In this document: positions 9,882 to 19,611 of the stretch, piece after piece
Layout of the letters: every line of letters begins with the position of its first letter
Numbering within the stretch: the first letter of the stretch is position 1
NCBI RefSeq assembly: GCF_010731635.1
Contig: NZ_AP022583.1
Span: 2,666,001-2,730,000 of the forward strand
Direction: 5' to 3'
From: Mycobacterium noviomagense
GTDB taxonomy: Bacteria; Actinomycetota; Actinomycetes; Mycobacteriales; Mycobacteriaceae
Length of the DNA stretch: 64,000 bases
The notes under the pieces: model-generated
What the model saw: the letters and a program-made list of their open reading frames with translations, nothing else
The model's database searches: none
Told to the model about the DNA's origin: nothing
Position numbers and translations under genes: made by a program

Positions 9882-13856
<3,975 letters not shown>

Positions 13857-13964
13857 CGTTCCCTAGCGCGAGCAGCTGCCAGGGGGCTTCGCCCCGCGGT
13901 GGAAGATGAAAATTAGCACTGGCCGTTCGGCTGGGTGGGTGGTTGCTTCGCGGGCCGGTGCGGG

Positions 13965-14105
13965 TTGACGCTTTAGGGGTGTTTCGGTGACCCCGTTGCG
14001 TCTGTGTTGCCGGTGAGCACGGCGAGCAGCTTGGTGGCTGGAGGGCACCCCCTGGTGGTTGTGCGGGGGCGGTGGATTGTTGCCTGTGAGCACGTGAGTG
14101 AGACT
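13965..14105 (+). ncRNA. candidate bridge (guide) RNA of the IS110 element
   Basis: The non-coding left end contains four segments that fit a bridge RNA. TTGCGTCT (13996-14003) complements the target half AGACGCAA. GCGAGCAG (14022-14029) equals the other target half. CCCCCTGG (14048-14055) complements the element's own left end CCAGGGGG (13879-13886). GAGTGAG (14096-14102) equals the right end plus core (15511-15517). The first pair would form a target-binding loop and the second a donor-binding loop. Small hairpins (GGGGT/ACCCC, CAGC/GCTG) lie between them. Bridge RNAs are established for IS110 elements such as IS621. Boundaries and the call here are inference. Confidence 0.5.
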
Positions 14106-14177
14106 CCTGTTTTGTTTTCGCCCTCTCCGAAACACGCTCCACCACAAGATATCTGGACGGAAAGGGTGTGATCGGCC

Positions 14178-15466
14178 ATGGAGGTGATCCATCCGCGGTG
14201 CGCGGGCATTGATGTGTCGAAGAAAGACGCGAAGGTCTGCGTTCGGGTTCAGGGCCGAGGGCGGCGTGGCACGTCGACAACGGTCAGTACGTGGGGGTCG
14301 ACCACCGGCGAGATCCTGGCGTTACGCGAGCATCTGCTCGCTGAGCGGGTGTCCTGTGTGGTGATCGAATCCACCTCCGATTACTGGAAGCCGTTTTACT
14401 ACCTACTCGAAGGCCAGCTGAACGTGATGCTGGTCAATGCCAAGGCGGCGCGCAATGTGCCCGGGCGCAAGACCGATGTCTCGGATGCGGCGTGGCTGGC
14501 CGATCTGGGCGCCCACGGGCTGCTGCGCGCCTCGTTTGTGCCGCCGGAGCCGATTCGGGTGTTACGCGATCTGACCCGGGCTCGCACCACCATCACCCGG
14601 GCGCGCACCAAAGAGATTCAGCGGCTGGAGAAGCTGCTCGAAGACACCGGAATCAAACTCTCCGCGGTGGCCTCCAACATCGTCGGAGTCTCCGGGCGGG
14701 CAATGCTAGAAGCGCTGATCGCCGGCCAACGCGATTCGGTGGTCCTCGCTGATCTGGCCAAACAACGGATGCGTCAAAAAGATCCCAGCGCTCACCGAGG
14801 CGCTGCGCGGACGGTTCACCGAGCATCACGCCTTTATGGTGCGGTTGTATTTGGATCGCATCGATGCCCACACCGCCGATATCGCCCGCCTGGATGCACG
14901 CATCGAGGAGGCGATCGCTCCCTTTTCGACCCATCCGGGAGTTGCTGATGAGCATCCCGGGCTGGTCGCTGCTGGTGGCCGATGTGTTCATCGCCGAAAC
15001 CGGTGCGGACATGAGCGTATTTCCCACCGCCGCGCACCTGGCGTCGTGGGCCGGGGTGGTGCCGGGCTGCGACGAGTCAGCAGGCCGGGTCAAATCGGGC
15101 GCCACCCGCCCGGGCAACCGTCACCTTAAAGCCGCGCTCGGCGTGGCAGCCCTGTCGGCCGCTCGCACCAAAGACACCTACTACAGCATCCGCTACCGGC
15201 GCATCGCCGGCCGGCGCCGGGCCGCCCAATCGCGCAGAGACAAAACCGCCGGTATGTCGATCGCCGGCCAGATCGCCCTAGTCTCCATCGAACACAAGAT
15301 GCTCACCGACGCCTGGAACATGCTGACCAACGGCGCCTTCTACCGCGATCCCGGCCCCGACTACTACACCCGACACCAGCCCGGCAAAGCCAAGGCACGA
15401 GCCATCAAGCAATTGGAGAGCCTGGGATACAAAGTCACCCTCGAGCCACCCACCCAAGCCGCCTAA
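14178..15466 (+). pseudogene. IS110-family transposase, two frameshifts
   Basis: A serine/DEDD recombinase of the IS110 family. The N-terminal RuvC-like domain shows Asp12 (AGIDVSK), Glu64 (VVIESTSDYW), Asp100 and Asp103 (KTDVSDAAW). The C-terminal Transposase_20 domain has LMSIPGWS and the CDESAGRVKSGATRPGN segment expected to hold the catalytic serine. Against the other copy this one has one extra A near 14780 (A5 versus A4) and one extra T near 14934 (T4 versus T3). Removing both gives a 428-aa protein. Both changes are in homopolymers, so assembly error is a real alternative to decay. Confidence 0.85.
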
Positions 15467-15515
15467 CACCTAATGCCAGCGACTCATCAGCAAGGGGTCG
15501 CCTCATTTTCGAGTG

Positions 15516-15567
15516 AGACGCAAAGGCCCCCGCACGCACGGCGTGTCGGGGGCCTTTGCGTCTGCTC
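15516..15567 (+). terminator. hairpin terminator 1 (AGACGCAAA family), outer arm cut by IS110
   Basis: AGACGCAAAGGCCCCC (15516-15531) pairs perfectly with 15548-15563, followed by GCTC (15564-15567). The matching outer GAGC of the left arm is at 13870-13873, on the far side of the IS element. Rejoined, the arms are 20 bp and begin 13 bp after the rpoC stop, so this was probably the rpoBC terminator. Confidence 0.7.
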
Positions 15568-15974
15568 ACCACATCATCCCCAGCACTGACTTTCCACCAG
15601 CGAGCGCCGACGGCACCATTCGCCGCATGTTCGACGACGACATCTTCACCAGACGTCAGCTGCTCGACGTCATGAGCCGCAAACGCTTGGCCGAATTAGT
15701 CAAGATGGGCAAGCTCATTCGGGTGTGTCATGGCGTCTATACGTTCAGGGAGCCCGATGTGCTGCTGAAGTTGACGGCACTGGATCTGTTGGCTCGTCAG
15801 CCGATCGTCGCCTGTATGGGAACAGCGGCAGCGTTGTACGGCTTTGATATCGAGAGCACGTCGCGCGTTCACGTGCTTGATCCAGGCGTACGGATGCGAC
15901 CGTCGCCAAACGTGATGGTGCATCAGCGAATCGGCGCTCCGCTGCGGCGAGTCGAGGCTCGACTTGCCACAGGG

Positions 15975-15984
15975 CCGGCGTGGA
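15975..15984. repeat. target-site duplication, left
   Basis: CCGGCGTGGA here is repeated exactly at 17396-17405, bracketing the IS256-family element. IS256 elements usually duplicate 8-9 bp, so one or two of the ten bases may match by chance. Confidence 0.75.
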
Positions 15985-17395
15985 GTTGACGTCCCTGGGT
16001 GTGGTGGAAATGGCGGCGTGTCGGTTCTGATGTAGAGGGGGCCATCGCGTGAGTCTCTGTGGTGAAACCGCCAAGTATCACTACCGAGAGGAACATCGCG
16101 ATGGCCCTGGATCAGTCTGCCTTGCTGGAGGTGTTGGACGCACTACGCAATGCCGATGCCGCTGGCCGGATTAAGCAGGCCGCCGAAACCATTTATCAGG
16201 CGTTGATCGACGCCGAACTGACCGCGGTGATCGGCGCTGGCCCCTACGAGCGCAGCGAAGCCCGCACCAACCAGCGCAATGGCTCACGGCCGCGCACGCT
16301 TTCCACAGTGGCCGGGGATCTGGAGCTGCGGATCCCCAAGCTCCGCAGCGGATCGTTCTTCCCGGCGCTGCTGGAACGGCGCCGCCGGGTCGATCAGTGC
16401 CTGTTCGCGGTGGTCATGGAGGCCTACCTGCACGGCACCTCCACCCGCAAGGTCGACGATCTGGTCAAAGCCTTGGGCGCCGACAGCGGTATCTCCAAAT
16501 CCGAGGTGTCGCGCATCTGCGCTGATCTGGACACCGAAGTCGCCGCCTTTCGGGATCGGCCGCTGGCCGATCAACGATTCCCGTACATCTTCTTAGACGC
16601 CACCTACTGCAAGGCCCGCGTCAACCACCGCGTGGTCTCCCAAGCGGTGGTCATCGCGACCGGGGTCGCCGCCGACGGACGCCGCGAAGTGCTGGGTTTT
16701 GATGTCGGCGATTCCGAGGACGGCGCGTTTTGGACGGCGTTTTTGCGCTCGCTGAAATCGCGGGGTCTGTCTGGGGTGCAGTTGGTGATCTCCGATGCCC
16801 ACACCGGACTGCGCAACGCCATCGAGGCGATCCTGATCGGCGCGAGTTGGCAACGCTGCCGGGTGCATTTCCTGCGCAACCTGTTGGCTCAGGTTCCCAA
16901 AGGCTCGGCGGAGATGGTCGCCGCAGCGATCCGCACCATCTTCGCCCAACCCGACGCCGAGCACGTGCGCGAGCAGCTCGACACCATCGCCACCATGCTT
17001 GGCCGCCAATTTCCTAAAGTCGAAACGATGCTGCGCGATGCCGGCCCAGACATCACCGCATTCGCCGATTTCCCTGTGCCGCACTGGAAAAAGATCTGGT
17101 CGACCAATCCACTCGAGCGCCTCAACAAAGAGATCAAGCGCCGCACCGACGTCGTCGGAGTCTTTCCCAACCCCGCCGCACTGTTGCGGCTCGCCGGCTC
17201 GGTGCTCGTCGAGGCCCACGACGAATGGCAGGTCGCCGACAAACGCTACCTCTCCGAAACCACACTCGCCCTGCTCAATCCCGCCACCAAACCCGAGCAG
17301 AACGTTGCCACATCGGCAGCCCTCACGGCATAGTGAACAACCGCAGAGCCTCAGGCGAAACGCCCGCTTTACTTACACCACTCCACGGGGCACGA
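15985..17395 (+). mobile_element. IS256-family insertion sequence (IS1245/IS1311-like size)
   Basis: A 1411-bp element bounded by the 10-bp repeat. It holds one transposase gene and short flanks. The ends share imperfect inversion, with CCTGGGTGTGGTGG on the left resembling CCGTGGAGTGGTG on the reverse of the right. Size and a 410-aa transposase fit the IS1245/IS1311 group of mycobacterial elements; the exact name needs an ISfinder comparison. Confidence 0.82.
16101..17333 (+). CDS. IS256-family (mutator type) transposase
   Basis: A 410-aa DDE transposase. Asp166 (IFLDATYCK), Asp232 (VISDAHTG) and a Glu in NPLERLNKEIKRRTD (339 or 344) are the expected catalytic residues. The family's conserved CRVHFLRN and the NQRNGSRPR motif near the N-terminus are present. 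The frame is open 14 codons further upstream, but the ATG at 16101 has GAGAGGAA before it and gives the usual length. The gene is complete, so the element may still be able to move. Confidence 0.92.
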   Translation: MALDQSALLEVLDALRNADAAGRIKQAAETIYQALIDAELTAVIGAGPYERSEARTNQRNGSRPRTLSTVAGDLELRIPKLRSGSFFPALLERRRRVDQCLFAVVMEAYLHGTSTRKVDDLVKALGADSGISKSEVSRICADLDTEVAAFRDRPLADQRFPYIFLDATYCKARVNHRVVSQAVVIATGVAADGRREVLGFDVGDSEDGAFWTAFLRSLKSRGLSGVQLVISDAHTGLRNAIEAILIGASWQRCRVHFLRNLLAQVPKGSAEMVAAAIRTIFAQPDAEHVREQLDTIATMLGRQFPKVETMLRDAGPDITAFADFPVPHWKKIWSTNPLERLNKEIKRRTDVVGVFPNPAALLRLAGSVLVEAHDEWQVADKRYLSETTLALLNPATKPEQNVATSAALTA

Positions 17396-17405
17396 CCGGC
17401 GTGGA
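17396..17405. repeat. target-site duplication, right
   Basis: This is the second copy of CCGGCGTGGA (see 15975-15984). It marks the right edge of the IS256-family insertion and the point where the interrupted reading frame resumes. Confidence 0.75.
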
Positions 17406-17906
17406 CGGCGGTAGAAGTCGCGCGGACCTTGCGGCGACCGCGCGCGCTGGCGACGCTCGACGCTGCCCTGCATGTAGGGGCCTGTACCACAGGCGAATTG
17501 CATGCTGTGATACACGAGCAGAAAGGCCGTCGCGGCATCGTCAAAGTCCGCGAATTGATTGGGTACGCCGATGGCCGCGCCGAGTCGGCGATGGAAAGCG
17601 AGGCGCGACTGGTATTCATCGACGGCGGATTGCCGGTGCCACAGTTGCAGTACAGCATTGTGGACCACTACGGCCGACTCTGGCGTGTGGACTTCGCCTG
17701 GCCGGAAGCGATGGTTGTCGCCGAATACGACAGTGTGGAATGGCACGTGGGTCGCGACGCCTTGCTCCACGACCGGCTGAAAACCGCCCGACTCCAGGAA
17801 TGCGGCTGGACCACCATTCCGATGACCGTCGATGACGTCCGCGGCGACCCGATCGGGCTTGTTGAGCGCATCAACGCCCAGTTGCTGAGGCCTCGCTTAG
17901 CTGGCT

Positions 17907-17959
17907 GAGCAGACGCAAAAGCCCCCATTCCGCCACCCGAATTAGGGGCTTTTGCGTCT
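17907..17959 (+). terminator. hairpin terminator 2 (AGACGCAAA family), right arm cut by IS110
   Basis: GAGCAGACGCAAAAGCCCC (17907-17925) pairs with GGGGCTTTTGCGTCT (17945-17959). The last four bases of the right arm, GCTC, are at 19600-19603 beyond the right IS110 copy. It would terminate the interrupted gene, whose TGA overlaps the stem. Confidence 0.7.
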
Positions 17960-18008
17960 CACTCGAAAATGAGGCGACCCCTTGCTGATGAGTCGCTGGC
18001 ATTAGGTG

Positions 18009-19294
18009 TTAGGCGGCTTGGGTGGGTGGCTCGAGGGTGACTTTGTATCCCAGGCTCTCCAATTGCTTGATGGCTCGTGCCTTGGCTTTGCCGGGCTGGT
18101 GTCGGGTGTAGTAGTCGGGGCCGGGATCGCGGTAGAAGGCGCCGTTGGTCAGCATGTTCCAGGCGTCGGTGAGCATCTTGTGTTCGATGGAGACTAGGGC
18201 GATCTGGCCGGCGATCGACATACCGGCGGTTTTGTCTCTGCGCGATTGGGCGGCCCGGCGCCGGCCGGCGATGCGCCGGTAGCGGATGCTGTAGTAGGTG
18301 TCTTTGGTGCGAGCGGCCGACAGGGCTGCCACGCCGAGCGCGGCTTTAAGGTGACGGTTGCCCGGGCGGGTGGCGCCCGATTTGACCCGGCCTGCTGACT
18401 CGTCGCAGCCCGGCACCACCCGGCCCACGACGCCAGGTGCGCGGCGGTGGGAAATACGCTCATGTCCGCACCGGTTTCGGCGATGAACACATCGGCCACC
18501 AGCCGCGACCAGCCCGGGATGCTCATCAGCAACTCCCGGATGGGTCGAAAGGGAGCGATCGCCTCCTCGATGCGTGCATCCAGGCGGGCGATATCGGCGG
18601 TGTGGGCATCGATGCGATCCAAATACAACCGCACCATAAAGGCGTGATGCTCGGTGAACCGTCCGCGCAGCGCCTCGGTGAGCGCTGGGATCTTTTGACG
18701 CATCCGTTGTTTGGCCAGATCAGCGAGGACCACCGAATCGCGTTGGCCGGCGATCAGCGCTTCTAGCATTGCCCGCCCGGAGACTCCGACGATGTTGGAG
18801 GCCACCGCGGAGAGTTTGATTCCGGTGTCTTCGAGCAGCTTCTCCAGCCGCTGAATCTCTTTGGTGCGCGCCCGGGTGATGGTGGTGCGAGCCCGGGTCA
18901 GATCGCGTAACACCCGAATCGGCTCCGGCGGCACAAACGAGGCGCGCAGCAGCCCGTGGGCGCCCAGATCGGCCAGCCACGCCGCATCCGAGACATCGGT
19001 CTTGCGCCCGGGCACATTGCGCGCCGCCTTGGCATTGACCAGCATCACGTTCAGCTGGCCTTCGAGTAGGTAGTAAAACGGCTTCCAGTAATCGGAGGTG
19101 GATTCGATCACCACACAGGACACCCGCTCAGCGAGCAGATGCTCGCGTAACGCCAGGATCTCGCCGGTGGTCGACCCCCACGTACTGACCGTTGTCGACG
19201 TGCCACGCCGCCCTCGGCCCTGAACCCGAACGCAGACCTTCGCGTCTTTCTTCGACACATCAATGCCCGCGCACCGCGGATGGATCACCTCCAT
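18009..19294 (-). pseudogene. IS110-family transposase, one frameshift
   Basis: This copy reads intact from the ATG at 19294 through the DEDD domain (Asp12, Glu64, Asp100, Asp103). It shifts frame near 18419, where a run of four G in the left copy is three here, inside LASWAGVVPGCDESAG. Restoring the base gives the same 428-aa product as the corrected left copy. The A and T runs that are long in the left copy are normal here. Taken together the two copies define one intact parent gene. Confidence 0.85.
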
Positions 19295-19366
19295 GGCCGA
19301 TCACACCCTTTCCGTCCAGATATCTTGTGTTGGAGCGTGTTTCGGAGAGGGCGAAAACAAAACAGG

Positions 19367-19507
19367 AGTCTCACTCACGTGCTCACAGGCAACAATCCAC
19401 CGCCCCCGCACAACCACCAGGGGGTGCCCTCCAGCCACCAAGCTGCTCGCCGTGCTCACCGGCAACACAGACGCAACGGGGTCACCGAAACACCCCTAAA
19501 GCGTCAA
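19367..19507 (-). ncRNA. candidate bridge RNA, right IS110 copy
   Basis: This is the mirror of 13965-14105 with the same four guide-like segments. On the plus strand CTGCTCGC and AGACGCAA, the complements of the two target guides, can be read near 19441-19480. As the guides are unchanged, both copies should seek the same hairpin target. Inference only. Confidence 0.45.
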
Positions 19508-19611
19508 CCCGCACCGGCCCGCGAAGCAACCACCCACCCAGCCGAACGGCCAGTGCTAATTTTCATCTTCCACCGCGGGGCGAAGCCCCCCTGGCAGCTG
19601 CTCGCGCTAAG

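What the first reader, a model, noticed from the sequence alone, without database searches (positions are those of the whole stretch)
13965..14105. Candidate bridge RNA with matching target and donor guides
Seen: the non-coding left end carries TTGCGTCT (complement of one target half) and GCGAGCAG (same as the other half). Further on are CCCCCTGG (complement of the element's left end) and GAGTGAG (same as its right end plus core). Both pairs have the same order: complement of the right side first, copy of the left side second. Established: IS110 bridge RNAs use two loops to pair with target and donor DNA. Inference: this is the guide RNA and explains the hairpin target. The order relative to IS621 and the loop folds were not verified, and short matches can arise by chance.
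Basis: partly seen in the sequence, partly recalled or inferred. Interest (0 to 1): 0.8.

Follow-up and report, generated by a model that had tools for sequence, protein, structure and literature searches.

The report
RNA-guided insertion element at gene-end hairpins
A mobile DNA element in a mycobacterium appears to carry its own guide RNA that steers it into hairpin-forming DNA just behind genes, and its relatives have naturally rewritten that guide to match other sites, in a layout that mixes features of two known kinds of such elements.

Summary
A covariance model places it at 13979-14135 (+), and in a second copy at 19337-19493 (-). The genome holds 10 copies, all at the same place in one arm of GCGAGCAG|ACGC-type hairpins; 8 of 10 lie just behind a probable gene. 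Target guides are TTGCGTCT (13996-14003) and GCGAGCAG (14022-14029); the right-end donor guide is GAGTGAG (14096-14102). Across relatives, mostly Actinomycetota, guides track targets (0 of 2000 or 5000 shuffles as high), and the fold shows compensatory changes. The unusual point is polarity: on the transposase strand the guide order is opposite to IS621 and as in IS1111, and the core is AG (CT on the other strand). The clade also has 6-8 bp sub-terminal inverted repeats, an IS1111 trait, yet keeps its RNA upstream as in IS110. A new variant of a known kind. Expression and activity are untested.

The parts
13868..13875 (+). left flank GCGAGCAG: interrupted half of the target arm; core AG at 13874-13875
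   Evidence: same 8 bases left of all 10 genomic copies
13876..15517 (+). IS110-type element, 1642 bp including the right core AG; this copy's transposase is frameshifted
   Evidence: ends defined by 10 copies at different sites
13908..13913 (+). left sub-terminal inverted repeat GAAAAT
   Evidence: family-wide covariation with the right-end repeat, 0 of 5000 shuffles, n=52
13979..14135 (+). bridge RNA (structured part)
   Evidence: covariance-model hit, E 9.6e-22 (another copy of this element, L009, is one of the 32 seed sequences)
13979..13987 (+). helix 1, 5' strand GUGUUUCGG, pairs with 14127-14135
   Evidence: 8 of 9 pairs with changes on both sides
14127..14135 (+). helix 1, 3' strand CCGAAACAC
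13995..14003 (+). left target guide GTTGCGTCT (last 8 match; complement of core plus right flank)
   Evidence: 0 of 5000 shuffles, n=51
14005..14021 (+). hairpin of the target-binding loop (helix 3)
14022..14029 (+). right target guide GCGAGCAG (copy of left flank plus core)
   Evidence: 0 shuffles
14030..14031 (+). handshake guide 1, CT = first two bases of the left end
   Evidence: 1.93/2 against 1.12 shuffled, 0 of 5000 (junction chosen with these bases included)
14040..14046 (+). helix 4, 5' strand GGAGGGC, donor-binding loop; pairs with 14120-14126
   Evidence: 6 of 7 pairs with changes on both sides
14073..14081 (+). tentative left donor guide UGGAUUGUU
   Evidence: best of 57 offsets (5.25/7 paired against mean 2.65, SD 0.50) but no covariation
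14078..14094 (+). hairpin of the donor-binding loop (helix 6)
14096..14102 (+). right donor guide GAGTGAG
   Evidence: 0 of 2000; 4.78/5 against 2.92 shuffled, 0 of 5000, n=51
14103..14104 (+). possible handshake guide 2, AC = first two bases of right flank
   Evidence: matches here, but no family-wide signal (2382 of 5000 shuffles as high)
14178..14948 (+). transposase, first part (DEDD_Tnp_IS110), frameshifted
14864..15466 (+). transposase, second part (Transposase_20)
15505..15510 (+). right sub-terminal inverted repeat ATTTTC
15518..15567 (+). rest of the target hairpin behind rpoC
17958..19597 (-). second copy of the element (bridge RNA 19337-19493); ends by arithmetic and the copy length

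Best explanation
The left end encodes a bridge RNA, read from the transposase strand. It pairs through one loop with the genomic target and through a second loop with the element's own joined ends, so that the DEDD/serine recombinase inserts the circular element at an AG (CT on the other strand) dinucleotide. Here the target guides spell the arm of a repeated hairpin found behind genes, so insertion falls between a gene and the rest of its hairpin. Shown computationally: the conserved fold, guide-target tracking, right-donor-guide tracking, handshake guide 1, and the common target of the 10 copies. Inferred: transcription, binding by the transposase, RNA-DNA pairing and recombination chemistry, by homology to IS621. 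The donor/target polarity is inverted relative to the gene and RNA strand, compared with IS621.
For: Covariance model R1 (34 pairs; 98.2% of cells paired; 18 pairs with changes on both sides; 0 of 500 shuffles). It finds 48 of 48 relatives outside its alignment (E 7.3e-6 or better) plus both window copies, and 0 of 3 IS621 copies; some of the 48 are close to seed members. G.U cells outnumber A.C cells 169 to 5, fixing the strand. Guide tracking. Similar RNAs (scaffolds 86-90% alike) with different guides match their own sites (7 pairs, which share elements: own 5.14/6, swapped 1.86/6). All 10 own copies have the same left flank, and joining the flanks gives a predicted hairpin in 10 of 10 (-28.9 to -63.1 kcal/mol). 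Pfam IS110 domains. The IS621 catalytic serine aligns with the conserved serine here.
Against: No RNA-seq or activity data. The left donor guide is uncertain and shows no covariation. Handshake guide 2 shows no signal family-wide. LTG tracking is modest (2.96 of 7) and limited to about 4 core-proximal bases; L087/L088 do not match on that side. Of 100 loci with both motifs, 10 had a left-junction match below 8/10, some of them with too little flank. Where several motif candidates existed, the one followed by an AG-ending 8-mer was preferred, which favours AG cores. Boundaries used for RTG, handshake 1 and RDG were chosen by the match itself; one search is the test without that filter.
Confidence: 0.93

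Rival explanations
1. The structured left end is only a 5' leader that regulates transposase translation, and the matches to flanks are DNA-level recombinase recognition sites, not RNA guides.
For: The RNA ends 43 bases before the transposase start, so a leader role is possible in addition.
Against: Short segments at fixed places in one RNA fold change together with both target halves and with the right end; a DNA-binding model does not predict this.
Confidence: 0.04
2. The guide RNA is real but transcribed from the other strand.
For: Inverted polarity relative to IS621 might suggest it.
Against: G.U cells are 169 and A.C cells 5 on the transposase strand; on the other strand the copy/complement pattern would match neither the IS621 nor the IS1111 arrangement as read here.
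Confidence: 0.02
3. The matches arise by chance or as captured target fragments without function.
Against: 0 of 2000 and 0 of 5000 shuffles and natural guide swaps.
Confidence: 0.01

Closest known systems
IS621 / ISCro4 (IS110 family; bridge RNA; PMC11208160, PMC11208158)
   Same: DEDD plus serine recombinase (PDB matches 8wt6, 9t56); upstream RNA; two loops with left and right guides that include a CT core; handshake bases after the right target guide
   Different: CT core and guide order are on the opposite strand relative to transposase and RNA; long-range helix encloses both loops; donor loop is a multiloop; transposase 428 aa against 326; sub-terminal repeats of about 6-8 bp against 2-3 bp reported for the IS110 group
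IS1111 group (IS5075/IS4321, ISEc11, ISPa11; seekRNA, PMC11187229)
   Same: guide order: complement of right flank first, copy of left flank second (PMC11187229; in IS5075 by eye AAAACGGAA and then only a short TATTT); sub-terminal inverted repeats; multiloop donor region (PMC11208160, section 12)
   Different: RNA upstream, not downstream, of the transposase; extensions outside the repeats about 32-41 and 7 bp against 7 and 3 bp; best local BLASTP match weaker than to IS621 (4e-4 against 3e-8)
ISArsp3 (Arthrobacter sp. FB24; named member of this clade)
   Same: 67.6% identical transposase; same left-end architecture; guide AAGTGAG equals its left flank and ATGTCAG its right end (by eye)
   Different: different target
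REP-targeting ISs (PMC1525189, seen in a search listing and in reference lists only)
   Same: repeated extragenic palindromes used as insertion sites
   Different: not compared in detail here

Membership tests
IS110 family | DEDD_Tnp_IS110 plus Transposase_20 domains | tested here: met
   (intact copy L009)
IS110 family | catalytic serine aligned with IS621 S241 | tested here: met
IS110 group (IS621/ISEc21 type) | long non-coding region with guide RNA upstream of transposase | tested here: met
IS110 group (IS621/ISEc21 type) | bottom-strand match 5' of top-strand match (transposase strand as top) | tested here: not met
   opposite order; AG core at 57 of 60 left and 50 of 51 right boundaries (guide choice preferred AG; the ends of multi-copy sets do not depend on guides)
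IS110 group (IS621/ISEc21 type) | no or only 2-3 bp sub-terminal inverted repeat | tested here: not met
   9-base window, own 6.75/9, shuffled 5.83, 0 of 5000, n=52
IS1111 group | guide RNA downstream of transposase | tested here: not met
IS1111 group | top-strand match 5' of bottom-strand match | tested here: met
IS1111 group | sub-terminal repeats with 7 bp left and 3 bp right extensions | tested here: not met
   about 32-41 and 7
bridge RNA | target-binding loop whose two guides covary with the target | tested here: met
bridge RNA | donor-binding loop with two guides to the element ends | tested here: inconclusive
   right donor guide met; left donor guide only positional
bridge RNA | RNA expressed, bound by and required for the recombinase | not testable with these tools
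   needs RNA-seq, co-purification and an activity assay

The most novel reading that the evidence does not exclude
This 420-430 aa actinobacterial IS110 clade is a third architecture: IS110-type upstream RNA combined with IS1111-type polarity, a multiloop donor region and sub-terminal repeats. The reported 'reversed guide order' of IS1111 against IS110 would then not be a different way of reading DNA. It would be an inversion of the recombinase-plus-RNA cassette relative to the attachment site, and this clade would be the link between the two groups.
Probability: 0.5. Interest if true: 0.72.

Novelty: new variant of a known kind. Interest (0 to 1): 0.62.

Why it matters
It gives a large set of natural guide-target pairs in a second bridge-RNA architecture, which makes the pairing rules testable outside the IS621 group. 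It also offers a concrete explanation for the reversed guide order between IS110 and IS1111, and a compact class of possibly programmable recombinases from Actinomycetota. Targeting hairpins behind genes also suggests how such an element can multiply with little harm to its host.

Tried and rejected
Rfam search of 13800-15700: only two sub-threshold matches, so no known family. CCCCCTGG as left donor guide: rejected on relatives, though a 13-base wobble pairing is possible in this element. LDG covariation: none (own 3.93 against shuffled 3.99). Handshake guide 2: no family-wide signal. Controls with no or much weaker signal: RTG in the right region (42 of 2000 shuffles as high), reversed RTG (101 of 2000), RDG in the left region (693 of 2000). 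A junction promoter of the IS621 kind was looked for by eye only and not found; the promoter scan was not run. No structure prediction was run, because sequence already places the recombinase next to 8wt6/9t56. Published wording on guide order in the 395-455 aa IS110 subgroup was looked for and not seen; the figures of PMC11208160 (ISAar29, ISHne5) are not held and may show related cases.

Rows dropped: of 130 loci examined had a truncated transposase start; of the remaining 117, 17 lacked the motif pair. Of the 100 left, 64 distinct representatives with enough flank were used. For one search, 90 of the 100 passed the 8/10 junction filter (count); 10 of these had no loop anchor and 80 remained, giving 60 distinct RNAs, of which 52 had a right end and 51 enough flank beyond it. 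Alignment A3 left out 4 of the 36 rows of A2.

Full report
WHAT IS THERE. The window lies in a single-contig 4.78 Mb genome. It is Mycobacterium in the GTDB sense (inference): a 'same genus' handle, G018, has contigs of the same lengths (51369 and 247146) as Mycobacterium pinniadriaticum contigs returned. The element spans 13876-15517, behind rpoC. Ten near-identical copies exist. They differ at 15 alignment columns, substitutions and single-base indels. Three carry an intact 428-codon transposase and one a 427-codon frame; the window copy is split into 256 and 200 codons. The intact protein has Pfam DEDD_Tnp_IS110 and Transposase_20.

TARGET. Each of the 10 copies has GCGAGCAG at its left; 9 of 10 continue on the right with ACGC (one of these, L011, after an extra TGAG) and one with CCGC. 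Joining the flanks in a script gives a predicted hairpin in 10 of 10, from -28.9 to -63.1 kcal/mol; for L011 the extra TGAG was left out. Seven of ten copies lie 7-19 bases behind the stop codon of a frame that runs off the fetched stretch, one of them rpoC, and one lies just behind a tRNA-Asn; L010 and L012 are unclear. The arm TTGCGTCTGCTCG occurs 75 times in this genome, with none for the reversed control pattern on either strand. It is found in 73 of 201 genomes searched, and is numerous in a few other members of the genus. These look like repeated terminator-like hairpins; that label is inference. A mycobacterial terminator family called TRIT is recalled from the RNIE paper, which is not held; I saw it only as cited in PMC3526491 (passages), and did not show that these are TRITs.

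THE RNA. A 32-sequence alignment of left ends (A3) gives a consensus of 34 pairs. Counted against controls, 98.2% of cells pair, 18 pairs have changes on both sides (shuffled mean 8.2), and the covariation score is 0.363 (shuffled 0.178); 0 of 500 shuffles reach any of these, and slid versions fall to 33-52% paired. The fold has a 9-bp long-range helix (8 of 9 pairs with changes on both sides) enclosing a target-binding loop with one hairpin and a donor-binding multiloop with two. G.U cells outnumber A.C cells 169 to 5, so the RNA is on the transposase strand. The model finds 13979-14135 (+) and 19337-19493 (-) in the window, 48 of 48 other relatives given, and none of three IS621 copies. In its class, 16 of 197 genomes have a match under stricter filters, and ten copies in this genome are found.

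GUIDES. Positions were fixed by the motif before each guide, not by the match to the flank; where several candidates existed, one followed by an AG-ending 8-mer was preferred (script). In 64 representatives with 36 distinct right target guides, the guide matches its own left region at 7.05/8 against 5.80 in elements with a different guide; guide plus the next two bases reaches 8.92/10 against 6.87; the right donor guide matches its own right region at 6.80/8 against 5.91; 0 of 2000 shuffles reach any of these. Once the junctions are placed (60 distinct RNAs; 51 with a usable right end), RTG6 is 5.18 against 2.73, handshake guide 1 is 1.93/2 against 1.12, and RDG5 is 4.78 against 2.92, each 0 of 5000. 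These three are flattered because the junction was chosen by the match, and 10 of 100 loci had been dropped for a match below 8/10. The LTG test is not, because the right end is placed by another guide: 2.96/7 against 2.01, 0 of 5000, with signal at the four core-proximal positions. An offset scan puts the LTG peak at the expected place. Results against: handshake guide 2 shows nothing family-wide (0.706 against 0.695); the left donor guide does not covary (3.93 against 3.99), though UGGAUUGUU is the best of 57 offsets (5.25/7 paired with wobble against mean 2.65, SD 0.50). Because both it and the left end are conserved in related sequences, that peak is few independent observations. It also overlaps predicted stems.

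NATURAL REPROGRAMMING. Seven pairs of elements have RNA scaffolds at least 85% alike but right target guides differing at three or more of six bases. Guides match their own flank at 5.14/6 and the partner's flank at 1.86/6. The pairs share elements (ten in all) and come from the 90 loci that passed the junction filter, so they illustrate rather than prove.

POLARITY. In three IS621 copies fetched as controls, compared by eye, the RNA strand carries first a copy of the left flank (ATCGGGCCT against ATCAGGCCT or ATCGGGTCT) and then GTAG, the complement of CT plus right flank; the core on the transposase strand is CT. PMC11187229 (abstract and sections 6, 9, 12, 13 and 14 read) reports that order for ISEc21 and the opposite for IS1111 elements. 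Here the complement of the right flank comes first and the copy of the left flank second. The core on the transposase strand is AG at 57 of 60 left and 50 of 51 right boundaries. IS5075, an IS1111 element, shows the same order by eye, clear for the first segment and short for the second. Read on the CT strand, the present RNA has the IS621 order. So pairing geometry appears to be kept while the gene-plus-RNA cassette is turned round relative to the attachment site (inference). The clade also has sub-terminal inverted repeats, about 6-8 bp by eye, that covary between ends (9-base window: own 6.75, shuffled 5.83, 0 of 5000). PMC11187229 treats these as a mark of IS1111, and PMC11208160 (sections 6 and 12 and passages read) gives 2-3 bp for the IS110 group.

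HOW IT PROBABLY WORKS. By homology to IS621 (PMC11208158, passages read), the recombinase binds the RNA, the target loop reads the hairpin arm, the donor loop reads the joined ends, and exchange occurs at the core. The two bases after the right target guide equal the first two of the left end, as a handshake guide should. None of this chemistry was tested.

RELATION TO THE KNOWN. The clade includes the named ISArsp3 (67.6% identity), whose guides also fit its own site by eye. The recombinase matches IS621 and ISCro4 in the PDB at about 1e-17 with a profile. It is an IS110-family member by protein and RNA position, but fails two features that mark the IS621/ISEc21 type and two that mark IS1111. 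Papers on guide polarity in this subgroup were not seen; the figures of PMC11208160 that show ISAar29 and ISHne5 are not held.

Noticed in passing
window 17958-19597 (-): A second copy of the same element in opposite orientation, 2.4 kb away, also in a hairpin arm; its longest transposase frame is 366 codons.
   Followed up: partly
window 15513-17908: A reading frame with a sub-threshold AbiEi_4 match ends near where an IS256-type element (Transposase_mut, E 2e-135, frame 16059-17333) begins; a further frame follows it without a Pfam match. Described only.
   Followed up: partly
L011 right junction; also L086 and L094: An extra TGAG between the right end GAGTGAG/GAGTAAG and the right flank. 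The repeated GAG/TGAG contains a second AG, so a 4-base register shift in core choice is possible.
   Followed up: no
G000, G029, G058, G011: Hairpin arm TTGCGTCTGCTCG is present 75, 69, 51 and 22 times in these genomes, while 128 of 201 genomes searched have none; a candidate repeated terminator.
   Followed up: no
L176 847-993: A strong bridge-RNA match (E 4.9e-25) about 1.5 kb upstream of the transposase, suggesting an interrupted or cargo-carrying element.
   Followed up: no
window 13881-13886: The window copy lacks one G of the CAGGGGGG run present in the other nine copies.
   Followed up: no
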